Assembly (NCBI RefSeq): GCF_018128065.1
Contig: NZ_CP072360.1
Location: 1,554,501 to 1,618,500, forward strand
DNA: 64,000 nt
Source of the DNA: Prevotella melaninogenica
GTDB taxonomy: Bacteria; Bacteroidota; Bacteroidia; Bacteroidales; Bacteroidaceae
Direction of reading: 5' to 3'
A model generated the notes under the pieces. It was not told the DNA's origin. It saw only the letters and a program-made list of their open reading frames with translations, and searched no databases. Each line of letters begins with the position of its first letter. Position 1 is the stretch's first letter. Below are positions 4,733 through 64,000 of this stretch, one piece after another. A program made the position numbers and the translations under genes.

Positions 4733-5149
4733 TCATCCGTCTGGAAATTCAGAGTCCTTCCCCAATTGGTGCAATAACTGCATAAGATGCTGCTTAAATC
4801 TTCTACTGTCCAGCTTGCACAGCCGATTGAGAATGACGATGAGATCTTCCTGCTCCATTGTGGAGAAGCGAAGGCTTTTATGGGGCGTGGTTGCTATCAT
4901 GGACTCAATCATACCCTTGGGGAGATGTATCAAGAGCACGTCCATATCGAAGGCTGCCGCACATCTTGCATAAGTGTTGATACGAAGGTCGGTCTGCATC
5001 TTGCAGTGTTTCATAAAGTTGGAATATTCCATATTGGCATAGCCTGCCCTTAGCTTGCAGTTTTTGCTGGCGGAGAGCATGATTTCAAGTGTCGGAAGTA
5101 CAACGTAGAATTTTGCATTACTTCCGGAGTTTTGTTTCTTTGTATTCAT
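4733..5149 (-). CDS. Unknown 138-aa protein at the head of the primase operon
   Basis: I do not recognise this family. The protein is mostly helical, lacks a signal peptide or membrane segment, and has a basic N-terminus (MNTKKQNSGSNAKFYVV). The middle (NFMKHCKMQTDLRINTYARCAAAFDMDVLLIHLPKGM) could be a degenerate Cro-like helix-turn-helix followed by a strand, which would suit an element regulator. It is first of four genes read on the minus strand (5149 to 1927) with a 51-base gap to the next. The whole cluster lies just outside the left end of the mobilizable element, and may be the remains of the element into which that one inserted. Confidence 0.6.
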   Translation of the reverse strand: MNTKKQNSGSNAKFYVVLPTLEIMLSASKNCKLRAGYANMEYSNFMKHCKMQTDLRINTYARCAAAFDMDVLLIHLPKGMIESMIATTPHKSLRFSTMEQEDLIVILNRLCKLDSRRFKQHLMQLLHQLGKDSEFPDG

Positions 5150-46613: not shown

Positions 46614-49600
46614 TCATTTAATGATAACTTTCTTTCCGTTGTGGATATAGACTCCGTGCTGCGGATGTTCTACACACTGCCCCTGCAGGTTGTAGTAAGC
46701 TCTGTCGGTACTGTTGTCTGATGAGGCTGTATCAATCGTGTCGATACCTGTCGTTGAGGAGTCGTCGAAAGAGAACATCACCTTGGCACCGACCGGTACC
46801 CCCTGGATCTTGGCGTATGCCTTGTGAACCGGTATATTGATTGTAGCCTTGGCTTTCTTGAAGATACCTTCACGGGCGGACATGACGTAGATAGGATCCG
46901 TGCCTGTCGTGACGGTGTGCGGATTGACTGTGACACCTTCCATCATGTTGTGGCTGATGGTATATGTGTGGTCGTCTTTCTCACCGATGGTGTAGTAGAA
47001 GTCAGTGGGAGTTTTCTCTCCGTCAAGCACCTTCAGCAGTACACCGGTATAAGCCGGTATATAGCCGTATTCGTTGGTAACACCGCCGTTCACATCTACA
47101 CTTGTCATACGTACCATGTAGGTAGACGTACCGTAGTCGCCGGAACCCTGTGTGATGCTTGAGATAGGAGCTACAAATGCGCCCATGTCGCAGATGTGCT
47201 TTTCCTTCTTGTACTCGCTGAAGTCCGTGTCGAACTCACGTGCGAATGTACCGTACTTGTGTGTGATGTTGATACCCGGAATCTTGAAGTCAATCTGGTT
47301 GATGAAGTTCCTGGTGCTTTCAACATATTTATGTTCAGTCGTACTGTAGACCTTTTTATCCCATTCAGTCTTGTAATTGGAAAGCTGGGACTTCTTCACA
47401 TAGACTTTCGTAGAAGAGGCGAACTCATTGTAATCTTTTCCAGTCTCATCCAGTTCAAAGCGGGTAGTACTCAGCATCTGCTTTGTCGGGTTGGAAGAAA
47501 GGAAGAATACATTTTCGATGGTAGAAGCATCAGCTGTAATGTTTGTCTTGAAAGCCTTGGCACCGATGTACTCTACATTCTTCTTCACAACCACCTCGTG
47601 TACGTTAGCAGAAGTTGACTGGAAAGCATAGTCACCAATCATGTTGACATTGTAGGTCTTGCCGTTGTGCTCCACTGTTTCGGGTACGACGAAAGTATAA
47701 TCGGTGTTTTTTACATCGAGGAGATCGACAGAGTTTTCTGATACCGGCAGATACTCCAGATTGTTTTCTATGAAAGAGGTATGTGTACTCTTAAAGTTCT
47801 GATAGAATGTGTTGGTTTGATAATCATTAAGGCGTTCTTTACGTACATAGATGTTTATGTTGGTCGGCATATTCGTTGTTCCTGCTGAGCCATTGTCGAA
47901 GCTGCGCTTGTTTTCTTCCTGATTGATTTTTGCCGGGTCAATCATCTTGTCGCAGAGGAATGTAATGGTATTCAAGTTCTTGCAATTATAGAATGCACGC
48001 TCGCCAATTTCTTCGACCTTGTTAGGAATAACAACATTCTTCAGACCTACGCATTCATAGAAAGCATAATTTCCAATCTTCTTGATTGAAGGAGGCAGGA
48101 GTGTAAAGTGTTCACTCGCCTTTCCATGAGGAAAGAGAATCAACTCTTCTTTATCGTGAGAAAGGAGATAACCGTCAACACTTGAGTACTTGGTATTCTC
48201 CTTGTCAACGTTGATTGCGGTTAAATGCTCGCAATATTTGAAAGTTTCCGGACTGACACTCTCTACATTCTTTGACAGATTGACGGTTGTCAGGGCTGAA
48301 CAGTTGCGGAAAGCTTCTTTTTCAAGGGTCTTAACACTGTTTGGAATACTGATAGAAGTCAGACCGCAGTCGGCAAGTGCTCCTGCCTTAATGGTTGTAA
48401 TGATAGCGTCGTCCTTAAAAGTGGCGGTTGCCATGCTCTTACAGCCGTTGAAAGCATTGCTGCCGATGGTAGTCACATTCTTGGGGAAGTTGAATCCCTC
48501 CAACTTGTCCAGGTTCTGGAATGCTCCGTCCTCGATAGTCTCAAGATCGCAACTGCCTTGGAAGTTGAAGTGCTTCAAGTTCCTGGTAAATTGGAGTGCA
48601 CCGTTCTTTATCGTCTTCAGTTTGGAGTTGTCAGGTACGTTGATGGTTTCCATACTTGAACATGATGTGAAAATCTTATCCAGTTCCTTTAGAGCGGAAG
48701 GCAGGGTTACCTCCTTTAATGCATAGTTCCATCCAAACGCACCACCGTCAATCTTCGAACAGCTCGAAGGATTGATAAATGTAACTTTCTTCAAATCCTT
48801 GAAGGAGCTGATGGCTTGCGTGTTAATTGTCGTTACACTGCTCGGAATTGTCAGCTCTTGGATATTCTGATTACTTGCAAAGGCAAACTTTTCTATTTCT
48901 TTGACGAAAGATGGGATGGTGTATTTCCCATCTGTTATTTCTTTTGACGGAGGGAAGAAATAAACTTTAGACTTGTCTGGTTTACTGTAGATGACACCTT
49001 CTTCTTCAATGAAGTTAACGCAGCCTGGTGCTGTTTTGTATTCCTTGATTTTCGGACAGCTGGCAATGGCTCCCGCCGTTCCGTCTACTTCAAGATCCTT
49101 TGGCAGAGTCACTGTCTTCAGATTCTGACAGCCAAAAAGAGAGTTGACATCTAATTTGGTCACTTGGTTCATATCGATACTCTCCATCTGTCTTACAGCA
49201 TCGAAAGCACGCAGGTAAATTCCTTTTATACCATTGGGAACCTTGTAATCTTTGTCCTGTTTGTTGCGAGGATATTGCACCAGTTTGTCTTTGTAGAACA
49301 GCACACCTCCATCAACCTTATAATCTCCTGTAGCACCTGCAGGCATCTCGTAAGCCTCTAAAGTGTTTATCTGTGCAAAACTTGGATAGTCTGTTGCAGC
49401 ATTTTTCAGATGAGGCAGTAAAATGATTTTCTTTATGCCTGTGTTCTGAGGAAAACTGATAAAGGCAGAATGCTTTATCACTTCTACGGCAGGGTTGATG
49501 GTATAAGTGCAGTCGGCAGTCATATATGCATCTGTCGGAACGGCATAGAGTTGGGTTTTGTCGTGGTTATAGAGTGCCCCATGTCCGTCATCCGAAAATG

Positions 49601-50042
49601 TTGTACTGGCTGATGCAACCGTGATTTTCGGCATTTTCTTTACTCTGTAGAAAGTGTTGTCAGATATTGTCTTAACAGTGGCAGGTATATTCAGTGTCTC
49701 CAGCTCTGCATCTGTAAAGGACGAATAGGCAATTTCCGTAATGCCTTCCGGCAGGTTCACGCTGGTTACCCCCTGGCATTTATAGATCTCATTACCACCC
49801 ACTTTTGTAACCTTAAAGGTGGTACCTTTATTGTCACTCCATGTTGCGGGGATAGTAATGGCCCCCGTCTTGTTCTCTGTTCCAACAAACGACAAGGTAC
49901 TTTCACTTGCTTTTACCACTTGGTAGACGATACCGTCATGTTTGACGATGTCACCATCAGTGTACGCTGCCACTTGCTTAGGCAGCAACAGCATCAGGAA
50001 GACGATAGACCATAACCTGAATTGAATTGTTTTTTCTCTCAT
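46614..50042 (-). CDS. BspA-like leucine-rich-repeat surface protein
   Basis: An 1,142-aa protein with a signal peptide (MREKTIQFRLWSIVFLMLLLPKQVAA). Then come many LRR_5/BspA units of about 23 residues of the form ITxIxxxAFxxCxxLxxVxIPxxVxxIG (examples VEEIGERAFYNCKNLNTITF and VTTIGSNAFNGCKSMATATF). A C-terminal region without LRRs follows, with an end of the kind AYYNLQGQCVEHPQHGVYIHNGKKVIIK, common in secreted Prevotella proteins and resembling a type IX secretion tail. BspA proteins bind fibronectin, fibrinogen and other bacteria, and are adhesins of oral Bacteroidota. First gene of a three-gene operon with the two tiny genes downstream. The leader is about 150 nt long. Confidence 0.9.
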   Translation of the reverse strand: MREKTIQFRLWSIVFLMLLLPKQVAAYTDGDIVKHDGIVYQVVKASESTLSFVGTENKTGAITIPATWSDNKGTTFKVTKVGGNEIYKCQGVTSVNLPEGITEIAYSSFTDAELETLNIPATVKTISDNTFYRVKKMPKITVASASTTFSDDGHGALYNHDKTQLYAVPTDAYMTADCTYTINPAVEVIKHSAFISFPQNTGIKKIILLPHLKNAATDYPSFAQINTLEAYEMPAGATGDYKVDGGVLFYKDKLVQYPRNKQDKDYKVPNGIKGIYLRAFDAVRQMESIDMNQVTKLDVNSLFGCQNLKTVTLPKDLEVDGTAGAIASCPKIKEYKTAPGCVNFIEEEGVIYSKPDKSKVYFFPPSKEITDGKYTIPSFVKEIEKFAFASNQNIQELTIPSSVTTINTQAISSFKDLKKVTFINPSSCSKIDGGAFGWNYALKEVTLPSALKELDKIFTSCSSMETINVPDNSKLKTIKNGALQFTRNLKHFNFQGSCDLETIEDGAFQNLDKLEGFNFPKNVTTIGSNAFNGCKSMATATFKDDAIITTIKAGALADCGLTSISIPNSVKTLEKEAFRNCSALTTVNLSKNVESVSPETFKYCEHLTAINVDKENTKYSSVDGYLLSHDKEELILFPHGKASEHFTLLPPSIKKIGNYAFYECVGLKNVVIPNKVEEIGERAFYNCKNLNTITFLCDKMIDPAKINQEENKRSFDNGSAGTTNMPTNINIYVRKERLNDYQTNTFYQNFKSTHTSFIENNLEYLPVSENSVDLLDVKNTDYTFVVPETVEHNGKTYNVNMIGDYAFQSTSANVHEVVVKKNVEYIGAKAFKTNITADASTIENVFFLSSNPTKQMLSTTRFELDETGKDYNEFASSTKVYVKKSQLSNYKTEWDKKVYSTTEHKYVESTRNFINQIDFKIPGINITHKYGTFAREFDTDFSEYKKEKHICDMGAFVAPISSITQGSGDYGTSTYMVRMTSVDVNGGVTNEYGYIPAYTGVLLKVLDGEKTPTDFYYTIGEKDDHTYTISHNMMEGVTVNPHTVTTGTDPIYVMSAREGIFKKAKATINIPVHKAYAKIQGVPVGAKVMFSFDDSSTTGIDTIDTASSDNSTDRAYYNLQGQCVEHPQHGVYIHNGKKVIIK

Positions 50043-53025: not shown

Positions 53026-53470
53026 TCATTTAATTGGAAGGTTATTCACCTCTTTACCTTCTTTAAATAATTTATAACCATCAGTAGCATATCCTTGTCC
53101 TATATATATAAACGACTCAGGAGAAACATCTTCCATAATATAGTCCTTAAAATAACATCCACCAAAGTCCATAGCATCCTCACAAACAAGCCTTAGCGGA
53201 TAATAAACATGGTACGAATCTTTCGCATACCCTGTATTTTTACATACCATGAAGCTACTTACATCAACGCCCTTAGTGCTGGCATCGTTGTATGTAAATA
53301 TATTGAATCTCCATAGCCCCCATAAATGCTGTCACCTATTCTGGTATAACCATCTATAGTTTCTCCATTTTTAAGTGGACCCATTCTCCTTTGCTTTTAT
53401 AGTTATATTTCTTATCTTTGCAAGAAACTAAGAAAGCACATAATATGATAATTATAATGTAAAGTCTCAT
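53026..53470 (-). pseudogene. DKNYY-like lipoprotein, frameshifted (immunity candidate of cassette 1)
   Basis: ATG at 53470 starts a lipoprotein signal (MRLYIIIIILCAFLVSCKDKK). After GEWVH the frame shifts near 53385 into KNGETIDGYTRIGDSIYGGYGDSIYLH, and again near 53295 into YNDASTKGVDVSSFMVCKNTGYAKDSYHVYYPLRLV, ending at 53026. The repeated Tyr-rich pattern (KDSYHVYYP, TDGYKLFKEGKEV) is like the DKNYY family. It overlaps the end of the Rhs1 toxin by 4 bases, the place of an immunity gene. Export to the envelope fits protection against a secreted protease. Two breaks suggest it is no longer functional, in line with the dead toxin upstream. Confidence 0.65.
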
Positions 53471-54217
53471 CTGCTTAGTCTTTTATATGTATACATCTTC
53501 AAAAATGAACTAGTCCAACTCATTGTTCCTATTCTGATACCAATATGGTTACTAATTGGAGAATATCGATTAATTTGCCCTGTATTATAGTTATGAATAA
53601 TACTTTGTATTTGAGAATCCTCAAGCTTACCTACATTTGCATAATTATATACATGATTGCGTCTTAAATACCCAGTTTGAGTCATAAGGTTACTATATAA
53701 ATTAACAACTCCATTATTTCTATGTTTGCATCACGTAATCCTGCAGAATGCCCTAACTCATGGGGGATGGTCCGAGTGTTTGAACCATTTAGTAAACCTT
53801 TCACAGCTCTTGGTCCTATCCTAATATGTAATCCGTTTAAATCACTAGTAGCTAATATGGAATTACTTTCAAACCTATTTTGATCAACTATTTCGAAAAC
53901 ATGATCATCTTTTGAATATCTTCAACAGAATTGACAACCCGTAAATTAATATTAGTTTTAACATTATATTTTTCGAGGAGAAAGTATATCTCGATTCTAT
54001 TTGTGCTTTATTTGATCTCTGACGTTATTAATATTTATTTCTTATCCCTGGAGTTATTATAAACTACTCCTGTAACGTTTATAAGTACATTTGTTTTACC
54101 ATCTTTATTTTTCGAAGTGTGGATATCCCATTTATTGCCATCAGAATCTATTAATTTAATAGGATTATCTATACAAAAAACATAACCACTACTTTCAACA
54201 TACTTCTCTGCAAATGC

Positions 54218-54566
54218 ATCTACCCCATACCAAATACTTGCCATAGGGTTCATGTACCTTGCACCGTAATAGTACAAGCCTGTTTCCTCATCAAACTGTT
54301 TGCCATTGAACTTATACGGTAGTTCTTCACTACTACTATGCTCGTCTACCAACAGCTCACCATACGGCAGGTAGGCATCATACTGGGTGATGTTGGCTTT
54401 ATCATCTGTGATGTAAGACGTGCTGCCGAGGTGGTCACTGTGATAAAAGAAGGTTTCTTCTTTCGTTGTATCATTAGGGATGTAACCGTATCCAGCCTGC
54501 GGGTCATCAGGGTTGCTTGGGTCGTTCCATGAGATGGGAGCGCCGGGGTTGGTGCCAGGTGTGGTG
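54218..54566 (-). repeat. Rhs core repeat, copy 1, part downstream of the IS
   Basis: Near-identical at nucleotide level to 58425-58773, 61221-61569 and 63260-63608. Together with 56677-56981 it forms the fourth copy of the core block. Confidence 0.85.
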
Positions 54567-54570
54567 TTAG

Positions 54571-56672
54571 CCCAAGTTTAACTGGCAAAAATATTTTCAT
54601 AAATATTCGGGATGTTTTGTGTAGTATCAATTTTATAAATGATTGATAATCAAGCATAGGGTATTGTAACGAGGTGTAAAATCCGAATTGTAGGACACCG
54701 TCATATCAAAATTATTTTGTTACTTTGCACTCATGCACGCAAATGTACAGACACGATTCAACCCTGCAACAGGCGACATGGCTCCTTATTATCGCATCAA
54801 GGAGTCATATCGTGACGTGCAGGGTCATGTACATTCGCTAATTCTGTTGAACATCGGTTTTGAACCTTCACTTACTGCCGTACAGGTTCGAAAAATTGCA
54901 TACGCACTTACCGAACGCTTCAAAAACAGAAGTACACCCTCGCTTTTCAAGGAACATCTTGACGGACTTACTCCTATTGAACAGGCAAAGGCTGACGAAT
55001 GGTGGAGCCGTATGGAGCAAGAAGGTGGAATCGATAGGTTTAACAAGGAAGAGCAGAAGTCGCTGAGAAAATATGAGAACTACGTTGACCTTGAGACGGC
55101 AAAATATACTGACGCAAGGAATGTCGGTGCTGAGTGGCTCTGCAAGCAGACGATAGACAAACTGCAATTAGAGGGTTTCCTGCGCAGAAACGGCTGGACA
55201 GAGAATACGATACACACGGCTTTGTCAGCATTGATTGTTCGCACAGTATATGCAGTTTCTGAACGTTCGTCTTATTATTATTTGCGCGATAACTCTGCTG
55301 CTGGTGAACTTTATAGTGGAGTTCCTGGCTGGACACCAGGAATCAATTCTCTATATAAAGTCACTGACAAATTATATGAACTAAAGGAACAGTTAGAGCG
55401 TCATCTGTGCAACGTTACTGACGACCTTTTAATATAGACAACAAGTTGATGCTCTTCGACTTAACCAACTTCTATTTCGAGGGCAGTAAGCGTAACAGCG
55501 ACAAGGCCAAGTTCGGTCGGTCAAAAGAAAAACGCTCTGACTGTAAGCTACTTGTACTTGCACTATGTATCAATAAAGAAGGTTTTATACGTTATTCTTC
55601 TATCTTGGAGGGTAATACAGCAGACCCCAAGTCTCTGCCCGATATGATTGACACGCTGGCAAAGAGGAATCCATCACGGACAAAGGATACGCTCGTTGTC
55701 ATGGATGCAGGTGTTGCCACGGAAGAGAACTTGGAGCTGATTAAAAGAAAAGGTTACAATTATCTCTGCGTATCTCGTACGAAAATGAAGGACTATACGC
55801 TCAGTGATGATAACAGGAGTGTTACGGTAATGGATGCCCGTCGGCAGAAGATAACGCTGAAAGAGGTTAAGACAGAGGATAACAAGGATTATTATCTCGA
55901 AATAACATCTCCTTCGAAAGCTATGACAGAGTCGTCCATGAACAGGGTCTGGAGAGAGCGTTTTGAGATGGAACTGCAGAGAATAAACGATGGAATCTCC
56001 AAGAAAGGTGGAACGAAAACCTATGAAAAGGTTGTTGAACGTACAGGACGTGCCATACAGAAGTACCCATCTATAGCGAAGTTCTATCAGATAAGCTACA
56101 TAAAAGATGAGAAGAAACCCAAGCAGATGCTGCGCATAGACTGGGAGATAAAAGACCTCTCCGCAATGGAATCTGGTCACGGAGTATACTTCCTCCGCAG
56201 CAATGTCAGGACACTTGATGAGCGTGTGACATGGGAATACTACAATCTCATTCGTGAGATAGAATGCACGAACAGGCAACTAAAGAATGATCTCAACCTC
56301 CGTCCTATCTATCATCAGAAAGATGAGAGAAGCGACGCACACCTCTTCTTCGGTTTATTAGCCTATTGGGTGGTAAACACCATCCGTTGTCAATTAAAAC
56401 GAGAAGGAGAATCCTGTTACTGGACCGAGATTGTACGACGTATGAGCACCCAGAAGCTCGTCACAACAAAAGGGAAGAATCCATTAGGAGAGAACATCGA
56501 GATGCGCCAATGTAGTAGTCCTTCGAAGCAAGCAAAACAGATATACGATAAGTTGAACTTAAAACACTCACCATACAAAAAGAATAAAATTTGTAGGACA
56601 CAGAACCCATAAGAAAAACGAGGAAAGTACGGTCACTGCAAGAAATAGGCGAAAGTGGGGGTTAAACTTGGG
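54571..56672 (+). mobile_element. IS1634-like insertion sequence (2,102 bp) inside Rhs cassette 1
   Basis: Ends are inverted repeats cccaagtttaac and gttaaacttggg. Flanked by a 4-bp duplication ttag at 54567-54570 and 56673-56676. Deleting the IS and one ttag joins ggtgttag to gatgtggagtctgaatcc, as in the other Rhs copies (compare 63608-63630). Confidence 0.92.
54733..56612 (+). pseudogene. IS1634-family transposase with one frameshift
   Basis: 54733-55437 encodes MHANVQTRFNPATGDMAPYYRIKESYRD to NVTDDLL. At the T4 run 55425-55430 one base seems missing; restoring it gives FNIDNKLMLFDLTNFYFEGSKRNSDKAKFGRSKEKR and the rest to 56612. DDE-like elements: LMLFDLTNFYFEG (D), DTLVVMDAGVATEENLELIKRKGY (D) and YYNLIREIECTNRQLKNDLNLRPIYH (E). 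About 620 aa when repaired, the usual length. If the base loss is real, this copy cannot move on its own. Confidence 0.82.
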
Positions 56673-57010
56673 TTAGGATGTGGAGTCTGAATCCAACCCT
56701 GTGGCACATCATGGTTACCGAGTTCGGTGAGAACAGCATTATAACCAACACCCGTGTTCTCTGGATCACCATACGCACCCTTCTCTGTTGGTACACCAGG
56801 TGCTACACCCACTTTCTTATAATAAGCCTCCTTCTGTGTCTGTATCTGATTCATACGTTCCGCATAGTCCTGCTGACCAGCTGTTACGTATGAGCCGTTG
56901 CGTCCATAGACATTATTGAACAGACCCGTTCCAATCCTTGAAGCAACTCGTTTGTCACCAATGAAGTAATGCTTCGTAAGGTGCTCATAAATCTATCTAT
57001 GAAATATAAT

Positions 57011-57580
57011 TTACAGAGAATCATCTATCAACTTTATTTGTGATAATTTATAATCATAAAAAAAATATACTTTCAAGTTATTATTACTAAATTTTATTAT
57101 AGGTATATCATCCCCCCAAAATGATAAATTTTCCTTCAAGTGGTTATGGAATTTTATATAATTATAGTCAAAGACATAGAACTTCGCTAGTCCAGATATA
57201 TTATAGAATATATAAATATAAGAATTGACTCCATTTATATATGTGATTTTTAATCTTTTCTTTTTTTCTTTTATCCGTATTTTAACCTGTCCTAATTTAT
57301 TGTAAATAGAATCTGTAAAAGGCGGCGTACGTATGTATAGCTCATTTTCATATTCATTAGTGATTGCATCCTTCTTTAAAGTTTTGATTACAGAGTCTTT
57401 TCGAATATAATCTCGTTCACCAATTCTTCTTATAAAGAAATAGCGTTTTCTCTTATAATTCCCTACAATTTTCAACATCTGGGCAGGAAACCTATCTACT
57501 ATATATGCATCTACGGATATAGTTTCCTGAGCATAAATAGGTAAAACGTAGAATAATAATAACAAAAATATTGATTTCAT
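57011..57580 (-). CDS. Exported 189-aa immunity candidate of Rhs cassette 2
   Basis: Signal peptide MKSIFLLLLFYVLPIYAQ with a clear cleavage region, then a Lys/Tyr/Phe-rich beta-type protein (NYKRKRYFFIRRIGERDYIRKDSV, LSFWGDDIPIIKFSNNNLKVYFFYDYK). I know no family. It starts 3 bases after the stop of the Rhs2 metalloprotease and is strongly AT-rich like other immunity genes. By position it is the immunity partner of the Rhs2 toxin; its export suggests that the toxin acts in the periplasm or envelope. Confidence 0.7.
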   Translation of the reverse strand: MKSIFLLLLFYVLPIYAQETISVDAYIVDRFPAQMLKIVGNYKRKRYFFIRRIGERDYIRKDSVIKTLKKDAITNEYENELYIRTPPFTDSIYNKLGQVKIRIKEKKKRLKITYINGVNSYIYIFYNISGLAKFYVFDYNYIKFHNHLKENLSFWGDDIPIIKFSNNNLKVYFFYDYKLSQIKLIDDSL

Positions 57581-57583
57581 TTT

Positions 57584-60127
57584 TTATTCCTTTGGCATTA
57601 TTAATCCAACACGTGTTCCTCGATCTCGCCCAATCCGACTCAACATTAATGCAATGCCCCCAGTATCTACATGTGGATTATTATCAAATAATGAAAAACC
57701 ATTTTGCATTTTGAATTGTGTATTTGCAAAGTTTGGAAGAGCTTGGGACATAATTTGCGTATAAAATACGTCTGAGTAACCCGCCCTAAAATTCGTTTCA
57801 GGATGAATTAAGCCCAAGTTATGACCAATTTCATGAACGAATAATGCACGATATATGTCTTTAGAGTATCCCGAGTGTGAGAGAAGATTCTCTATTCCAT
57901 TACGATACAATTCTATACACCAAGGATAACTACCATCTGAACCTAACGGAATATTCCCTGATGTTACTTCAGACATACCAATCTTTATTTTATTACCAAA
58001 TCTTACATCCATGTTATTTATATCTTTTCCTATAATACTACGCTCAAGTGCTTCATTCAATTCTCCTGATGAATTAAAAGTACGTAACCTTAAATCAAAT
58101 CTTACATATAAAGGATTATCATTGTCCAGATTGTAGAAAAGGGTATTATTAGAATACGGGGCATTGAGCCCTATAGGCTTTGCTTTTGGGACTTTGTATA
58201 CAGTTCCATTATTATTATATTCGTTAATAGCAAGCTCTAATCCCTTTACTTCATCAGGCTTGAGATCCGACTTCACATAATAATATTCCGCATGAATTAC
58301 AAATGGAGATTCCTTTGTTCCATTACCCGTAACTTCTCCATCCATGCCTGTCGAATCTACAAACTTAATTGGGTTACCCAAGGTGTAAGTATAAGTGCTT
58401 GTCCTTGTGTTTTTTTCTTGCATTGGATCCACTCCATACCACAGACTGGTAACAGGGTTCATGTACCTTGCACCGTAATAGTACAAACCTGTCTCTTCAT
58501 CAAACTGTTTGCCATTGAACTTATATGGTAGTTCTTCACTGCTGCTATGCTCGTCAACTAATAGCTCCCCATACGGTAAGTAAGCATCATACTGTGTGAT
58601 GTTGGCTTTATCATCTGTGATGTAAGACGTTGAGCCGAGGTGGTCACTGTGATAGAAGAAGGTCTCTTCACGTGTGGTATCATTAGGAATGTAGCCATAA
58701 CCAGCCTGCGGGTCATCAGGGTTGCTTGGATCATTCCAGCTTACAGGTGGACCGGGGTTAGTATTCGGTGTGGTGTTGGGGCGTGGAGTTTGAATCCACC
58801 CCTGTGGCACATCGTGGTTACCGAGTGTGTCAATGATAGAGTTATACCCTCGTTTTGTATTCTCGGGGTCACCATACGCACCCTTCATTGTAGGTACACC
58901 AGGGGCAATGCCCTGCTGCTTATAGTATGCTTCCTTCTGACGTTGTATTTGGTTCATACGTTCAGCATAATCCTGCTGACCAGCAGTAACGTATGAGCCG
59001 TTACGTCCATAGACGTTATTGAACAAGCCTGTTCCTAGCCTTGAAGCAGCTCGTTTGTCACCAAGGAAGTAATGCTTCGTGAAGCGGTTCTTGTTGACAG
59101 AGAGGATACTTGCAGGATAAAGTGTGAAGTTGTCCGTCTCGTGGAAAGTAATACCCTGCGGTGCTCCATTGATATACACACCCTCCATCGTACCGTAACT
59201 CTTCATGATGCGTTCGCCAGCAGCGTTATAAGTATAGCGTGAGGTTTTGCCATTATCGCTTAAGACCATCAGGCGGTTGTCCTCGTCCCAGTACATCTCA
59301 CGGGTCGTGTTGGTTGAGTCGTTCGTTACCAGCGTTGGATTACCGTTGGCATCGTAGGTGTAATGGTCATGACCAATCTGCGTTGGAGCCGTCGGGTGGT
59401 TGCTGTCCTCATACTTATAAGCAAAGTTATAAGACTTGGCGGTTGTTGTTGAGTCCACTTTCTGTACCTTAGTGAGCGGTTCACTCATCCGTCCGAACGA
59501 CATCACCATATCATACGATGCACGCTTTGCCTTACCGTTTGCGTGGACAAGGCGGTTCAGTTCATCATACTCATACGTATGCGAACTCCTTCCTCCTAAC
59601 TTCGCCTTGTTGAGTTTCGTCAGCGACGTTGGGTTGGCAGCATTCGTAATACCGAGGATATTATCCACAGCATCATAGCGATACTTGTTTTCCATCACAG
59701 TCTGACCATCCGCTGTAAGGTTCATCACCTGCAGACGTTCACGCTGCTTGTCGTAGGTATAGGTTGTCTCCGTGCCATTACCAAGTTTCGTATAGACCGT
59801 ATGACCCTCCTTGTCGTAACCTATCCTGTCAACTATAACGCTCTGACGTCCCTGTTTATTGCTCGTAAGACACTCAACCTGTCCGGCAGCATTGTAGTGA
59901 TAAGTTACCACTTCACCGTCAGGATAAGTCATTGTCTGTACACGATTCCAGCTGTCATAGGTAGCACCATAGACATAAGTCCTAATATCTGCTACGCTCG
60001 CCATGACTGTACGGACAGTTTTCGTCACCTCACCCTGTCGACCATAGTAATAGGCTTCACCGCCCGAAGCATTCTCTACAAGAGCAAGAACAAAAGGGCA
60101 AAAATAAGCTTCATTTCTTACTTCCAT
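57584..60127 (-). CDS. Rhs cassette 2: orphan Rhs core with metzincin-like metalloprotease toxin
   Basis: 847 aa. YD repeats run from about residue 20 (GGEAYYYGRQGEVTKTVRTVM, YDSWNRVQTMTYPDGEVVTYHYNAAGQV) to the Rhs core end (YHSDHLGSTSYITDD, KQFDEETGLYYYGARYMNPVTSLWYGVDP, about 565). The variable tip starts at QEKNTRTSTYTYTLGNP and ends in a zinc protease: ALFVHEIGHNLGLIHPE near 763 (HExxHxxGxxH) with a possible Met-turn (IMSQALPN). The N-terminus lacks any signal or PAAR/translocation domain; MEVRNEAYFCPFVL replaces it, and its ATG lies inside the end of immunity gene 3 (overlap 60111-60127). Full Rhs proteins exceed 2,000 aa, so this is an orphan tip with a long core. The frame is intact, so it could be expressed or recombine into an upstream full-length gene. 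Confidence 0.88.
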   Translation of the reverse strand: MEVRNEAYFCPFVLALVENASGGEAYYYGRQGEVTKTVRTVMASVADIRTYVYGATYDSWNRVQTMTYPDGEVVTYHYNAAGQVECLTSNKQGRQSVIVDRIGYDKEGHTVYTKLGNGTETTYTYDKQRERLQVMNLTADGQTVMENKYRYDAVDNILGITNAANPTSLTKLNKAKLGGRSSHTYEYDELNRLVHANGKAKRASYDMVMSFGRMSEPLTKVQKVDSTTTAKSYNFAYKYEDSNHPTAPTQIGHDHYTYDANGNPTLVTNDSTNTTREMYWDEDNRLMVLSDNGKTSRYTYNAAGERIMKSYGTMEGVYINGAPQGITFHETDNFTLYPASILSVNKNRFTKHYFLGDKRAASRLGTGLFNNVYGRNGSYVTAGQQDYAERMNQIQRQKEAYYKQQGIAPGVPTMKGAYGDPENTKRGYNSIIDTLGNHDVPQGWIQTPRPNTTPNTNPGPPVSWNDPSNPDDPQAGYGYIPNDTTREETFFYHSDHLGSTSYITDDKANITQYDAYLPYGELLVDEHSSSEELPYKFNGKQFDEETGLYYYGARYMNPVTSLWYGVDPMQEKNTRTSTYTYTLGNPIKFVDSTGMDGEVTGNGTKESPFVIHAEYYYVKSDLKPDEVKGLELAINEYNNNGTVYKVPKAKPIGLNAPYSNNTLFYNLDNDNPLYVRFDLRLRTFNSSGELNEALERSIIGKDINNMDVRFGNKIKIGMSEVTSGNIPLGSDGSYPWCIELYRNGIENLLSHSGYSKDIYRALFVHEIGHNLGLIHPETNFRAGYSDVFYTQIMSQALPNFANTQFKMQNGFSLFDNNPHVDTGGIALMLSRIGRDRGTRVGLIMPKE
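58425..60070 (-). repeat. Rhs core repeat, copy 2 (longest)
   Basis: Holds the block shared with copies 1, 3 and 4 and extends furthest upstream. The core/tip border is marked by the codons for GVDP (ggatcc at 58425-58430), also present at 61221-61226 and 63260-63265. Confidence 0.85.
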
Positions 60128-60509
60128 GATAACCTTTCATATAGAGTCTCATGCAAAGTACTGAGAGCAGGCCTAATGAAAGAATTCCCAACCTAACATA
60201 TATATCCTCTTTTTCATCATAAAAAAGTGTATCATTCCATTTATTATGGTATAAAATTTTATTTAGATTCCCGTCATTTATATCCTTCCTACTTACTGTG
60301 ACAGTGTATTCCTTACTCATATAACGTACTATGATATATGAAGTTATATTTATAGCACCACTATGTTCTGACACTATTTTATATGACTTAATTGGACCCG
60401 ATTTAATTGCTTGAGTATCGTAATAAACAACTATAATACTGTAGAATAAATATATAATACAGCCAGAGATCATCAATAGAAGATATCTACGAACTTGTTT
60501 GTATTCCAT
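60111..60509 (-). CDS. Membrane immunity candidate of Rhs cassette 3
   Basis: 132 aa from MEYKQVRRYLLLMISGCIIYLFYSIIVVYY at 60509; this ATG follows the toxin stop (60511-60513) by one base, which favours it over upstream ATGs at 60524 and 60560 lying within the toxin gene. Two membrane segments, near residues 10-28 and 108-122 (LGILSLGLLSVLCMRLYM), enclose a beta-type extracytoplasmic or cytoplasmic domain. No known family. Position and overlap pattern make it the immunity gene of the Rhs3 tip; a membrane location suggests that the toxin acts at or in the inner membrane. Confidence 0.7.
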   Translation of the reverse strand: MEYKQVRRYLLLMISGCIIYLFYSIIVVYYDTQAIKSGPIKSYKIVSEHSGAINITSYIIVRYMSKEYTVTVSRKDINDGNLNKILYHNKWNDTLFYDEKEDIYVRLGILSLGLLSVLCMRLYMKGYHGSKK

Positions 60510-60510
60510 T

Positions 60511-62060
60511 TTATTGACCACCATAATCTTTAGGTAATTGTGATTGTACTTTCTTTCCAACTTCTTTTTTTACCGTCTCTACCCCTGTTGTAAATGAGAC
60601 CAAAGTCCCATATAATGCTCTCGCTTCTCTCATTGCTGATTTAGCATTTCTAATTAATTTCATGTTAGGAGTTCTACGTGACTGTAATTTTTCTAATTTA
60701 TGTAAAGCAACACTATAGTTATGCCTAGCCTCTGCTGTTGCTTTTTTTAGATAGCTTGACGGGAGAATATGTCCAACTCCTTTGCTTATAAGAGTTTCTG
60801 CTATGATGGACTTCACAGACATTTCTTCTTTATTTATAACTCTCCCTATAACATTTTCGAGACCTTCCAATAAGAAGCCAATCCCCCTCTTTAGCTATAA
60901 ACTTTGCTACAGGGTTTTTAATAATCTTCAAAATGCTTGAAATGCCATTATTGATGGCACCTTCCGCTGCACCTGTTGCAATACCCCATGTGATGCTCAA
61001 ATAATCTCTCCCCTCTAATTCTTTATTTGCATTGATGAAAGAGTTTATAGAGACCTTATCCATCTTATCCATGATAATCGTTAAATATTGCGATAATCCA
61101 CCAGCAACCCCTCCGATAATAACACCATCAATCCCTATTTTTCCATCTTTGTCATAGTATCTAATAGGATTATCAGAGCAATAGACATAACTAAGTAACG
61201 TTGGCTTTGTGAGGCTCATTGGATCCACCCCATACCAAATACTTGACATAGGATTCAAGTACCTTGCACCATAATAGTATAGACCAGTCTCTTCATCGAA
61301 CTGTTTGCCGTTAAACTTATATGGTAGGTCTTCACTGCTACTATGCTCGTCAACTAACAGTTCACCGTATGGCAAGTAAGCATCATACTGTGTGATGTTG
61401 GCTCTGTCGTCCGTGATGTAAGACGTACTGCCAAGGTGATCACTGTGATAGAAGAAGGTTTCCTCTTTCGTAGTGTCATTGGGAATATAACCATATCCAG
61501 CCTGCGGGTCATCAGGGTTACTCGGGTCGTTCCAGCTTACAGGTGGACCAGGGTTGGTACCTGGTATCGTGTTAGGATGTGGTGTCTGAATCCAGCCCTG
61601 TGGAACATCATGGTTACCGAGTGTGTCAATGATAGAGTTATACCCTCGTTTTGTATTCTCGGGGTCACCATACGCACCCTTCATTGTAGGTACACCAGGT
61701 GCAATGCCCTGCTGCTTATAGTATGCCTCTTTCTGCTTCTGTATCTGATTCATACGCTCCGCATAATCCTGCTGACCAGCTGTTACATATGAGCCGTTAC
61801 GCCCATAGACGTTATTAAAAAGACCTGTCCCTATCCTTGAAGCAACTCGTTTGTCACCAATGAAGTAATGCTTTGTAAAGCGATTCTTGTTGACAGAGAG
61901 GATACTTGCTGGATAAAGCGTGAAGTTGTCCGTCTCGTGGAACGTGATTCCCTGCGGTGCACCATTGATATACACACCTCAACCGTTCCGTAGCTCTTCA
62001 TGAAACACGCGCCACCTGCTATAGGTGTAGCAACTTATCTTGCTGTTACCAAATATAGAC
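60511..62060 (-). pseudogene. Rhs cassette 3: orphan core with a helical tip, two frameshifts
   Basis: Core homology starts near 62060 (SKISCYTYS...), shows a one-base loss near 61978 (gttgag-gtgtgt where copy 2 has gagggtgtg) and resumes as YINGAPQGITFHETDNFTL, then runs to SIWYGVDPMS near 61221. The tip has a glycine-rich hydrophobic stretch (GIDGVIIGGVAGGLSQYL, GIATGAAEGAINNGISSIL). After KEGDW it shifts frame near 60868 into LEGLENVIGRVINKEEMSVKSIIAETLISKGVGH and ends ARALYGTLVSFTTGVETVKKEVGKKVQSQLPKDYGGQ at 60511. With the frame restored the tip is about 220 aa, helical and basic, of unknown activity. Confidence 0.75.
61221..62060 (-). repeat. Rhs core repeat, copy 3
   Basis: Shares its full length with copies 2 and 4; the 5' limit near 62060 is a sharp loss of homology next to the intergenic end of immunity gene 4. 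Confidence 0.8.
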
Positions 62061-62093
62061 ATGAATTCTTTTCTCTATCTGTGTATTTATTTT

Positions 62094-62567
62094 CTATATT
62101 AGCTTTAGATACCATTGATTAGATTTTACAACTATTATATCCTTTTTATGCGAAAACGCCAATATGGCTATCCGAAAACGATAAAAATTAACACTCCACA
62201 AACTGCTTTTTCCAAAGTAAATAATTAAAGGATCCCTTCGATTGGTAAAAGTTATTTTTACATATAGCCCCAAAAATGGTGTTGAACAAAAAAAGATGTG
62301 CGATATTTCCTTCCATGAAATCTTCATATTTCCTTCCTTTTCTGTAATTAGTAAGCCCAACTCATTTATGACTATTTTTCTATTGCGAGTTTTTACTAAT
62401 CCATAAATAAGAATAATGATTATAAATACTGAAATCAAAAGTATTATTTTCATATTGCTTTGGTGATTATTCATAATATCACCTACTGATAATGCAAATG
62501 GTATTAGCATTATCAATAACAATAAAAAAAAGGTAGGATATGTATATATATTAAAATCTTTTGCCAT
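62094..62567 (-). CDS. Membrane immunity candidate of Rhs cassette 4
   Basis: 157 aa from MAKDFNIYTYPTFFLLLLIMLIPFALSVGD at 62567; an upstream ATG at 62600 lies further inside the toxin gene. Two membrane segments (about 9-27 and 40-58, MKIILLISVFIIIILIYGLV), then a soluble domain with a PH-like pattern (KIVINELGLLITEKEGNMKISWKEISHIFF, LYVKITFTNRRDPLIIYFG). It overlaps the Rhs4 stop by 17 bases, in a different frame. By position it protects against the Rhs4 tip. Confidence 0.7.
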   Translation of the reverse strand: MAKDFNIYTYPTFFLLLLIMLIPFALSVGDIMNNHQSNMKIILLISVFIIIILIYGLVKTRNRKIVINELGLLITEKEGNMKISWKEISHIFFCSTPFLGLYVKITFTNRRDPLIIYFGKSSLWSVNFYRFRIAILAFSHKKDIIVVKSNQWYLKLI

Positions 62568-64000
62568 TAGAAGTAGACCTTTTATAAGTTGAATAACCAT
62601 ATGAAAACATTGAAGGTGTCATTTTTCCTGCTGCCACGCCAATTGCTGTTTGTACAGGGTAATTAGTGGCATTTTTTCCAAAAATGGCAAGATGACTATC
62701 AAATTGACGATTAACACTCACTCTTCGATTAACCATTCTATTAGCAAGCTGTTTTGCATATTTTCCAGAAGTTGTACCCAATGTTCTTTTGATTTCACTT
62801 TTTACTTCTTTACGAAAAGCTTGACGAACAACTGATGATGCATATTTATTTGCAACCTTTGCCGTCAACTTTGTTGCTCCTTTTTCTATAATTTTACCCA
62901 CTCCAGTACCAATACCTGCACTTACAACATTACTAACAACACTTTCTGCAATATCTCTTTTGTTTATATGCCCTTTTCCTATCAACGTTTCTCCTAAAGA
63001 TGCAACAGTACCACCTGCGGCGGTTGCCACAAAACCAGCACCACTTGCAATTAGAGCTCCGCTTACAGCGCCACTTAGTGCAGCTCCAGCAATCTCTCTA
63101 GCGGATTTTCCTTGGTATGCTGCAATACCTGCATTTATTAATCCCCCAGCAAAAGCACCAACTGCAATCCAAGCAACTTTACCATTTGGATCTATAAACT
63201 TAACAGGGTTGTTATGTGTATAAGTATGCACACTTTCAGCTGGATACTTCTCCGCTAAAGGATCCACTCCATACCATAGACTTGTCATAGGATTCAAGTA
63301 CCTTGCACCATAATAGTACAAGCCAGTTTCCTCATCGAACTGTTTGCCATTGAACTTATATGGTAGCTCTTCACTGCTGCTGTGCTCATCAACTAACAGT
63401 TCACCATATGGCAGGTAAGCATCATACTGGGTGATGTTGGCTTTATCGTCTGTGATGTAAGACGTTGAACCGAGATGGTCACTGTGATAGAAGAAGGTCT
63501 CCTCACGTGTTGTGTCGTTTGGAATATAACCATAACCAGCCTGTGGGTCACCAGGGTTGCTCGGGTCATTCCAGCTTACAGGTGGGCCGGGGTTGGTGCC
63601 TGGTGTCGTGTTAGGACGTGGAGTCTGAATCCAACCCTGTGGCACATCATGGTTACCGAGTTCTGTAAGGACAGCATTATAACCAACACCCGTGTTCTCC
63701 GGATCACCATACGCACCCTTTTCTGTCGGTACACCAGGAGCTACACCCACCTTCTTATAGTATGCTTCCTTCTGTGTCTGAATCTGATTCATACGTTCAG
63801 CATAGTCCTGCTGACCTGCAGTTACATATGAGCCGTTGCGTCCATAAACGTTGTTAAACAGACCCGTTCCTATCCTTGAAGCAACTCGTTTGTCACCAAT
63901 GAAGTAATGCTTTGTAAAGCGATTCTTGTTTACAGAGAGGATACTTGCTGGGTAGAGCGTGAAGTTGTCTGTTTCGTGGAACGTGATGCCTTGTGGTGCA
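62551..64000 (-). CDS. Rhs cassette 4: Rhs core with hydrophobic pre-toxin tip (partial, runs off the window)
   Basis: The frame is open from the window edge (64000) to 62551, 483 codons visible. Core: APQGITFHETDNFTLYPASILSVNKNRFTKHYFIGDKRVASRIG through YYYGARYLNPMTSLWYGVDPLAEKYP (near 63260). The tip starts AESVHTYTHNNPVKFIDPNG and carries a long Ala/Gly-rich amphipathic stretch (GAFAGGLINAGIAAYQGKSAREIAGAALSGAVSGALIASGAGFVATAAGG) typical of pretoxin regions. A basic C-terminal domain follows (EVKSEIKRTLGTTSGKYAKQL, RQFDSHLAIFGKNATNYPVQTAIGVAAG). The end domain is not recognised. It may be the full-length, expressed Rhs gene, since nothing visible truncates its start. Confidence 0.85.
   Translation of the reverse strand, partial: APQGITFHETDNFTLYPASILSVNKNRFTKHYFIGDKRVASRIGTGLFNNVYGRNGSYVTAGQQDYAERMNQIQTQKEAYYKKVGVAPGVPTEKGAYGDPENTGVGYNAVLTELGNHDVPQGWIQTPRPNTTPGTNPGPPVSWNDPSNPGDPQAGYGYIPNDTTREETFFYHSDHLGSTSYITDDKANITQYDAYLPYGELLVDEHSSSEELPYKFNGKQFDEETGLYYYGARYLNPMTSLWYGVDPLAEKYPAESVHTYTHNNPVKFIDPNGKVAWIAVGAFAGGLINAGIAAYQGKSAREIAGAALSGAVSGALIASGAGFVATAAGGTVASLGETLIGKGHINKRDIAESVVSNVVSAGIGTGVGKIIEKGATKLTAKVANKYASSVVRQAFRKEVKSEIKRTLGTTSGKYAKQLANRMVNRRVSVNRQFDSHLAIFGKNATNYPVQTAIGVAAGKMTPSMFSYGYSTYKRSTSNGKRF
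63260..64000 (-). repeat. Rhs core repeat, copy 4 (continues outside)
   Basis: Same block as in copies 1-3, with small differences (for example MNQIQTQKEAYYKKVGVAPG shared with copy 1 against MNQIQRQKEAYYKQQGIAPG in copy 2), so copies 1 and 4 are closer to each other than to copies 2 and 3 in this part. Confidence 0.85.

What the first reader, a model, noticed from the sequence alone, without database searches (positions are those of the whole stretch)
53026..64000. Head-to-tail array of four Rhs toxin/immunity cassettes
Four copies of the same Rhs core block (borders marked by GVDP codons at 54218, 58425, 61221 and 63260) are each followed by a different tip and a different small gene. Downstream copies are progressively lacking 5' sequence and have no export domain. 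This is the layout expected of a store of alternative tips that can be exchanged with the upstream full-length gene by recombination in the core.
Basis: partly seen in the sequence, partly recalled or inferred. Interest (0 to 1): 0.85.

Follow-up and report, generated by a model that had tools for sequence, protein, structure and literature searches.

The report
Rhs toxin with stored spare tips
A Prevotella-like bacterium carries one complete Rhs toxin gene followed by long rows of headless spare toxin tips with small partner genes, and related species show that such tips move between the stored and the working position; it is a large, clear case of a pattern already known in other bacteria.

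Summary
The four cassettes are real, but they are only the far end of a larger system. The genome (2 contigs, 3.34 Mb, Prevotella-like) holds 30 copies of this Rhs core: one full-length gene (3,110 aa) 32 kb beyond the window edge, and 29 headless orphan copies in three arrays plus one fragment. The head was found once. The 5' loss is not progressive along the array, and two of the four window tips are disrupted. Exchange through the core is supported by comparison: 4 of 8 intact full-length tips are orphans in other genomes; some cassettes are 98-100% identical between species whose sprA is only 72-82% identical; the full-length core shares a 1,037-bp identical run with an orphan core 1.5 Mb away; the same tip keeps the same downstream junction in 17 of 26 pairs, against 30 of 2,993 unrelated pairs. 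This is C-terminal displacement, described in Enterobacteria and, for an SpvB/TcdB-type rhs gene, in Ornithobacterium hominis. Whether stored tips are re-used or are mostly debris is open. Extra: the middle of the full-length protein also occurs as two alleles.

The parts
63244..64000 (-). Orphan copy 10 of array A: Rhs core; goes on beyond the window (core C2:1617744-1621365, about 3.6 kb)
   Evidence: blastn to the full-length gene; core ends at 63262
62551..63261 (-). Tip of copy 10, 236 aa open; no Pfam family above cut-off
62094..62600 (-). Candidate immunity gene of copy 10, 168 aa
   Evidence: ORF and position only; no family above cut-off
61221..62003 (-). Orphan copy 11: Rhs core, about 0.78 kb
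60511..61222 (-). Tip of copy 11, frame-disrupted (130 aa, then a separate 119-aa ORF); near-identical cassettes occur twice in array B
60111..60560 (-). Candidate immunity gene of copy 11, 149 aa, open
   Evidence: same ORF in array B
58425..60089 (-). Orphan copy 12: Rhs core, about 1.67 kb
   Evidence: TIGR03696 and RHS_repeat above cut-off
57584..58426 (-). Tip of copy 12, 280 aa, metallopeptidase-like only below the curated cut-offs
57011..57580 (-). Candidate immunity gene of copy 12, 189 aa
   Evidence: ORF and position only; no family match
56682..56979 (-). Orphan copy 13, 5' half of the split core
54571..56675 (+). IS element splitting copy 13 (DDE transposase, in two ORFs here)
   Evidence: 99% identical over 2,107 bp to C2:155651-157757; PF01609
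54135..54568 (-). Orphan copy 13, 3' half of the split core
53026..54217 (-). Tip and small gene of copy 13, both disrupted
   Evidence: tip open for 60 aa; pieces in several frames against a relative

Best explanation
The locus is a polymorphic Rhs/YD toxin of the SpvB-TcdB-like class: one deliverable gene and 29 headless core copies, most with a tip and small gene. Shown by sequence: the full-length gene has an N-terminal part, a middle block, a YD-repeat core and a tip; an orphan is a 5'-cut core plus tip plus small gene(s); the core is what orphans share with the full-length gene. Inferred from comparison: the moving unit is core end, tip, immunity gene and the start of the next core, and it moves by homologous recombination in cores, within the genome or with DNA from other Prevotella species. 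The incoming tip becomes the expressed one and the old tip with its immunity gene is shunted downstream (the published C-terminal displacement model). Inferred, not shown: orphans are mostly silent, can be recaptured by the same route, and decay otherwise; the tips act on other bacteria and the small genes give immunity. Delivery is probably not by T6SS; surface display linked to the T9SS is a guess from gene neighbours.
For: Single head: aa 1-600 and aa 1001-1640 each match once in the genome. Full-length/orphan swaps: of 8 intact full-length genes in 14 genomes, 4 have a tip that is an orphan elsewhere at 85-99.5% aa; one of them (G124) is an orphan in this genome at 98%. Transfer between species: this genome and G386 share 1,723 bp at 99.4% and 1,954 bp at 99.1%, with sprA 72.4%; with G124 1,089 bp at 99.2%, sprA 81.9%; 11 of 16 tip pairs have at most 2 synonymous differences. 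Recombination inside the genome: the full-length core and an orphan core of array B are identical over 1,037 bp; a run of 265 polymorphic sites exceeds all 200 shuffles; nearest neighbours change along many cores. Unit: same tip, same downstream junction in 17 of 26 homologous pairs vs 30 of 2,993 unrelated pairs; stricter count 15 of 25, 11 of these with a different next tip. Constraint: core median dN/dS 0.075 over 231 pairs, tips and small genes 0.37 each. Domains. T6SS: VipB 0 of 10 genomes, Bacteroidetes TssC 1 of 10, not this genome; SprA 10 of 10.
Against: 9 of 26 homologous tip pairs do not share the junction, so other rearrangements occur too. Pairs within a tip cluster are not independent. 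4 of 8 full-length tips, including this genome's own, were not found as orphans in the sampled regions. Clustered rate variation could lengthen some runs in the shuffle test, though hardly a 1,037-bp identical run. No strain-level, expression or function data.
Confidence: 0.8

Rival explanations
1. Graveyard: orphans are only debris of successive tip replacements by incoming DNA and are never re-used; the array records past tips.
For: Several stored tips are broken; in 3 of 5 broken-tip cassettes looked at the small gene is broken too. Tips and small genes are far less constrained than the core. An IS sits in one copy.
Against: Full-length and orphan cores of the same genome show recent recombination, and orphan tips are on full-length genes in other genomes, so the route back is open. 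Many stored tips are still long open frames.
Confidence: 0.4
2. Immunity bank: orphans are kept because their small genes protect against tips used by neighbours; the tips themselves are passengers.
For: The same tips circulate as full-length in other species, so protection would be useful. In 2 of 5 broken-tip cassettes the small gene is open.
Against: In the other 3 of 5 the small gene is broken too. Pooled dN/dS of small genes equals that of tips, 0.37. A promoter-like pattern recalled from memory was not enriched on the array strand: 4 hits vs 8 on the other strand in 69 kb.
Confidence: 0.2
3. Programmed switching by a dedicated site-specific recombinase, like a shufflon.
For: Array C is flanked by inverted repeats with a tyrosine recombinase gene on each side, and two of its five cassettes are inverted.
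Against: Junctions lie at many different core positions. The gene near array A that was tested is a DDE transposase; not every ORF near arrays A and B was scanned.
Confidence: 0.05
4. Assembly artefact: collapsed or misjoined repeats.
For: Long repeats with some identical runs can mislead assemblers.
Against: Two-contig assembly, 99.97% complete. Most cores differ from the full-length gene by 7-20%. The same layout recurs in other genomes, including P. denticola and Hallella multisaccharivorax.
Confidence: 0.03

Closest known systems
Large SpvB/TcdB-type rhs gene with displaced tips in Ornithobacterium hominis (PMC6421346, PMC13183296; passages read)
   Same: A Bacteroidota rhs gene over 9 kb with SpvB and TcdB signatures, smaller ORFs read as dissociated tips, some tips differing between samples; 26 orphan tips reported in the later paper's accessory genome, and one tip plus immunity gene shared with another genus.
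   Different: Other genus. Here three arrays and 29 orphans in one genome, and measured core recombination, junction sharing and middle-block alleles.
C-terminal displacement arrays of Enterobacteria (Jackson 2009, PMC2935791; abstract and passages)
   Same: Intact rhs gene followed by dissociated tips with core fragments of varying length; core and tip histories decoupled; exchange by homologous recombination proposed, via a circular intermediate.
   Different: There core regions within a locus are described as always identical; here most differ by 7-20%. Here an SpvB/TcdB-type head.
Orphan-to-main rhs fusion in Salmonella LT2 (Koskiniemi 2014, PMC3967940; abstract and passages)
   Same: Headless orphan toxin/immunity pair downstream of a main gene; a tip that is orphan in one strain is on the main gene in another.
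   Different: There the fusion and its toxicity were shown by experiment; here only by comparison.
TcdB/TcaC-type polymorphic toxins (Zhang 2012, PMC3482391; passages)
   Same: Signal peptide, SpvB, propeller, RHS, variable tip; stand-alone toxin cassettes with immunity genes; Tox-MPTase2 listed for this class in Bacteroidetes.
   Different: That survey gives a median of about 1 active to 3 cassettes; here 1 to 29 core copies.
Rhs repertoires of bee gut bacteria (PMC8125069; passages)
   Same: Mixtures of full-length Rhs and many orphan tips, suggested as a reservoir.
   Different: T6SS-associated proteins of about 1,400 aa.
TANFOR polymorphic toxins (PMC7073777; passages)
   Same: Bacteroidetes polymorphic toxins with T9SS substrates as gene neighbours.
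   Different: No TANFOR model matched the full-length protein in the NCBIfam scan.

Membership tests
Rhs polymorphic toxin with C-terminal displacement | RHS/YD repeats and conserved core end | tested here: met
   PF05593, TIGR03696, both above cut-off
Rhs polymorphic toxin with C-terminal displacement | One intact gene followed by headless tips with core fragments and small genes | tested here: met
   Array A: 1 + 13
Rhs polymorphic toxin with C-terminal displacement | Core and tip evolve apart; tips change place between full-length and orphan | tested here: met
Rhs polymorphic toxin with C-terminal displacement | Tip is toxic and the small gene protects | not testable with these tools
   Only family matches: 4 of 20 scanned tips above cut-off
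Rhs polymorphic toxin with C-terminal displacement | Resident orphan tip can join the main gene | tested here: inconclusive
   1,037-bp identical run between full-length and orphan core; direction unknown
SpvB-TcdB/TcaC class | SpvB and TcdB-middle domains | tested here: met
   PF03534 and PF12256 above cut-off
SpvB-TcdB/TcaC class | Signal peptide | tested here: inconclusive
   Lipoprotein-like start seen by eye; no predictor run
T6SS Rhs effector | T6SS in the genome | tested here: not met
   VipB 0 of 10 genomes, control positive in E. coli; TssC absent here, found only in P. denticola of 10; only these two models tried
T6SS Rhs effector | PAAR or VgrG part on the protein | tested here: not met
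   Not among Pfam matches of the full-length protein at E 0.01
T9SS substrate | C-terminal sorting domain on the toxin | tested here: not met
   None on the full-length protein; present on the gene just upstream (TIGR04183)
TANFOR toxin | N-terminal TANFOR domain | tested here: not met
Shufflon-type switch | Fixed recombination sites | tested here: not met
   Core starts and junctions scattered
Shufflon-type switch | Recombinase at the array | tested here: inconclusive
   Tyrosine recombinases flank array C; not all ORFs near arrays A and B were scanned

The most novel reading that the evidence does not exclude
The full-length protein is doubly modular. Besides the exchangeable tip, a block of about 1,050 residues (aa 575-1625, which includes part of the TcdB-like/FG-GAP region) occurs as two alleles 40% identical to each other, 98% and 91-96% within each among close relatives, between shared flanks and not following species kinship. 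Recombination would then reassort both what is delivered and, perhaps, how it is displayed or presented, with only the tip kept in spare copies; delivery would be by a T6SS-free, T9SS-linked surface operon.
Probability: 0.35. Interest if true: 0.68.

Novelty: new member of a known kind. Interest (0 to 1): 0.5.

Why it matters
The arrays are a natural record of tip exchange in Prevotella: one delivery head, 29 spare core copies in one genome, and tips moving nearly unchanged between species. The group would be a tractable place to measure how often spare tips are re-used rather than lost, an open point for Rhs systems. The two-allele middle block, if confirmed, points to a second exchangeable function in such toxins.

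Tried and rejected
Progressive 5' truncation: rejected. Promoters: a Bacteroidetes-type pattern recalled from memory gave 4 hits on the array strand and 8 on the other strand of the 69-kb array A region, so no sign of promoters for orphans. Structure of the full-length tip: mean pLDDT 36.7, unusable, no fold search made; a resemblance of that tip to NAD-glycohydrolase toxins is a thought from memory, with no Pfam match. A protein search found 7 relatives of that tip, on contigs too short to tell full-length from orphan. Carriers: no match in phage records; one record in the plasmid collection, a 568-kb P. nigrescens replicon. Literature: seven searches; no listed title or abstract start describes this locus in Prevotella, but the library lacks most subscription journals, so that is no proof it is unprinted. 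The two-allele block was not searched for in the literature. Core prevalence (44 of 398 genus genomes, this one included) scored at most 7 candidates per genome, so copy numbers there are lower bounds.

Rows dropped: the tip pattern (93 tips, 14 genomes) misses copies without a YGVD-type end, for example the one at C2:1625489; of 30 cores in this genome it found 26. Tips of 60 aa or less were left out of the tip comparison. Cores under 600 nt and those of G061 and Hallella were left out of the core alignment (68 kept). One of 16 immunity pairs was left out as unalignable. 20 of the 30 tips of this genome were given to Pfam. Scripts ended with errors after printing the results used here.
Full report
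WHAT WAS CHECKED. The window is G000:C2:1554501-1618500 of a two-contig, 3.34-Mb genome. Its nearest named match is Prevotella denticola (98% in the stretch searched); the species itself was not determined. Reading runs from right to left, so what lies to the right decides.

WHAT LIES TO THE RIGHT. A search of the own genome with the last 1,000 bases gave 31 matches; two are halves of one IS-split copy, so there are 30 cores. Array A (C2:1608.6-1660.3 kb) has one full-length gene (C2:1650949-1660281, 3,110 aa) and 13 orphans, and the window holds the last four. Array B (C2:116-144 kb) has 10 orphans, array C (C1:522-538 kb) five, two of them inverted, and one fragment lies at C1:58.6 kb. Aa 1-600 and aa 1001-1640 each match only the full-length gene in this genome. 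No orphan core here starts before full-length nt 4899. Core lengths rise and fall along array A, so 'progressively lacking 5' sequence' is wrong.

ANATOMY. The full-length protein matches SpvB, TcdB-middle, FG-GAP and RHS models above cut-off and the Rhs-associated core end. Its start looks like a lipoprotein signal (by eye). Directly upstream are a gene with a T9SS sorting domain (TIGR04183 above cut-off) and two genes with outer-membrane-barrel matches, one above and one below cut-off. All three stand in the same order in 9 of the 10 fetched regions that hold the head; the tenth stretch (G313) shows no clear third gene and was cut near there. T6SS sheath genes were not found in this genome; SprA was found in 10 of 10 genomes. 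Of 20 tips scanned out of 30 (one as a whole ORF with core), four match above cut-off: Tox-MPTase2, Toxin-JAB1, NucA/NucB and N-acetylmuramidase; four more have peptidase matches below cut-off; the rest have no informative match. In the window the tip at 57584-58426 is one of the below-cut-off peptidase cases, the tip at 62551-63261 is of unknown type, and the other two are disrupted. Stretches rich in tip and small gene have 30-35% G+C, stretches of core 47-48%.

IS THERE EXCHANGE? (a) Among 93 tips from 14 genomes, eight are on intact full-length genes; four of these eight are orphans at 85% aa or more in another genome. One, the full-length tip of G124, is an orphan here at 98%. (b) This genome and G386 share stretches of 1,723 and 1,954 bp at 99.4% and 99.1%, though their sprA genes are 72.4% identical; G124 shares 1,089 bp at 99.2% against 81.9%. 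In 11 of 16 tip pairs there are at most two synonymous differences. Other shared tips are less alike, 85-95%. (c) The full-length core and the first orphan core of array B, 1.5 Mb apart, are identical over 1,037 bp and then diverge. In a shuffle test on 474 polymorphic sites in 13 copies this run exceeds all 200 shuffles. Nearest neighbours change along many cores. (d) The same tip keeps the same junction to the next core in 17 of 26 homologous pairs against 30 of 2,993 unrelated pairs; by a stricter count 15 of 25, and 11 of those 15 have a different next tip. A moving unit of tip, immunity gene and trailing core, exchanged by recombination in cores, predicts this. Pairs of one cluster are not independent. 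(e) The core is under strong constraint (median dN/dS 0.075, 231 pairs); tips and small genes much less (0.37 each, 16 and 15 pairs).

STORE OR DEBRIS? Several stored tips are disrupted. In five broken-tip cassettes looked at, the small gene is open in two and broken in three. That speaks against a pure immunity bank and for weak selection on stored cassettes. Recombination between full-length and orphan cores of one genome shows that re-use is possible, not its direction or rate. Both readings stay open.

COMPARISON WITH WHAT IS KNOWN. The layout is C-terminal displacement (Jackson 2009, passages). Activation of an orphan by fusion has been shown in Salmonella (passages). An SpvB/TcdB-type rhs gene over 9 kb with displaced tips, some differing between samples, is printed for Ornithobacterium hominis, with 26 orphan tips in a later paper (passages). 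Large orphan sets are printed for bee gut bacteria (passages). So this is a new member of a known kind, large and unusually informative. Related cores occur in 44 of 398 sampled genomes of the genus (35 of 176 of high quality) at E 1e-25.

A SECOND EXCHANGEABLE BLOCK. Among eight full-length proteins, aa 575-1625 fall into alleles: G000 and P. denticola 98% identical (Hallella 67% to both); G146, G124, G386 and G165 91-96% among themselves; 40-41% between the two groups; G061 37-42% to all. The N-terminal part is 85-97% and the core 92-96% identical among the six close ones. P. denticola and G124, 98% identical in sprA, carry different alleles. In this genome orphans begin about where this block ends. 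I did not search the literature for it.

Noticed in passing
Full-length gene, aa 575-1625 (L032, outside the window): Middle block with two alleles about 40% identical between shared flanks, not following species kinship.
   Followed up: partly
L028-L029 (C1:515-544 kb): Array C is flanked by inverted repeats (82-94% identical pieces) with a tyrosine recombinase gene on each side, and two of its five cassettes are inverted.
   Followed up: partly
window 54571-56675: IS in the leftmost copy; its transposase is in two ORFs here, while a 99% identical copy at C2:155.7-157.8 kb has one 626-aa ORF.
   Followed up: no
C2:1660366-1663903 (L024): Conserved upstream trio: T9SS-sorted protein and two outer-membrane-barrel-like proteins beside the head in 9 of 10 regions.
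   Followed up: partly
L025 (C2:109.7-110.1 kb): A relaxase gene lies near array B, a possible sign of a mobile element beside it.
   Followed up: no
L084 (P. nigrescens NZ_CP082843.1): A 568-kb replicon deposited as a plasmid holds related core pieces; no full-length rhs gene is listed in the stretch viewed, whose gene table is incomplete.
   Followed up: no
window 46614-50042: 1,142-aa secreted-looking protein next to the array end; recalled as BspA-like leucine-rich repeat type, not tested.
   Followed up: no
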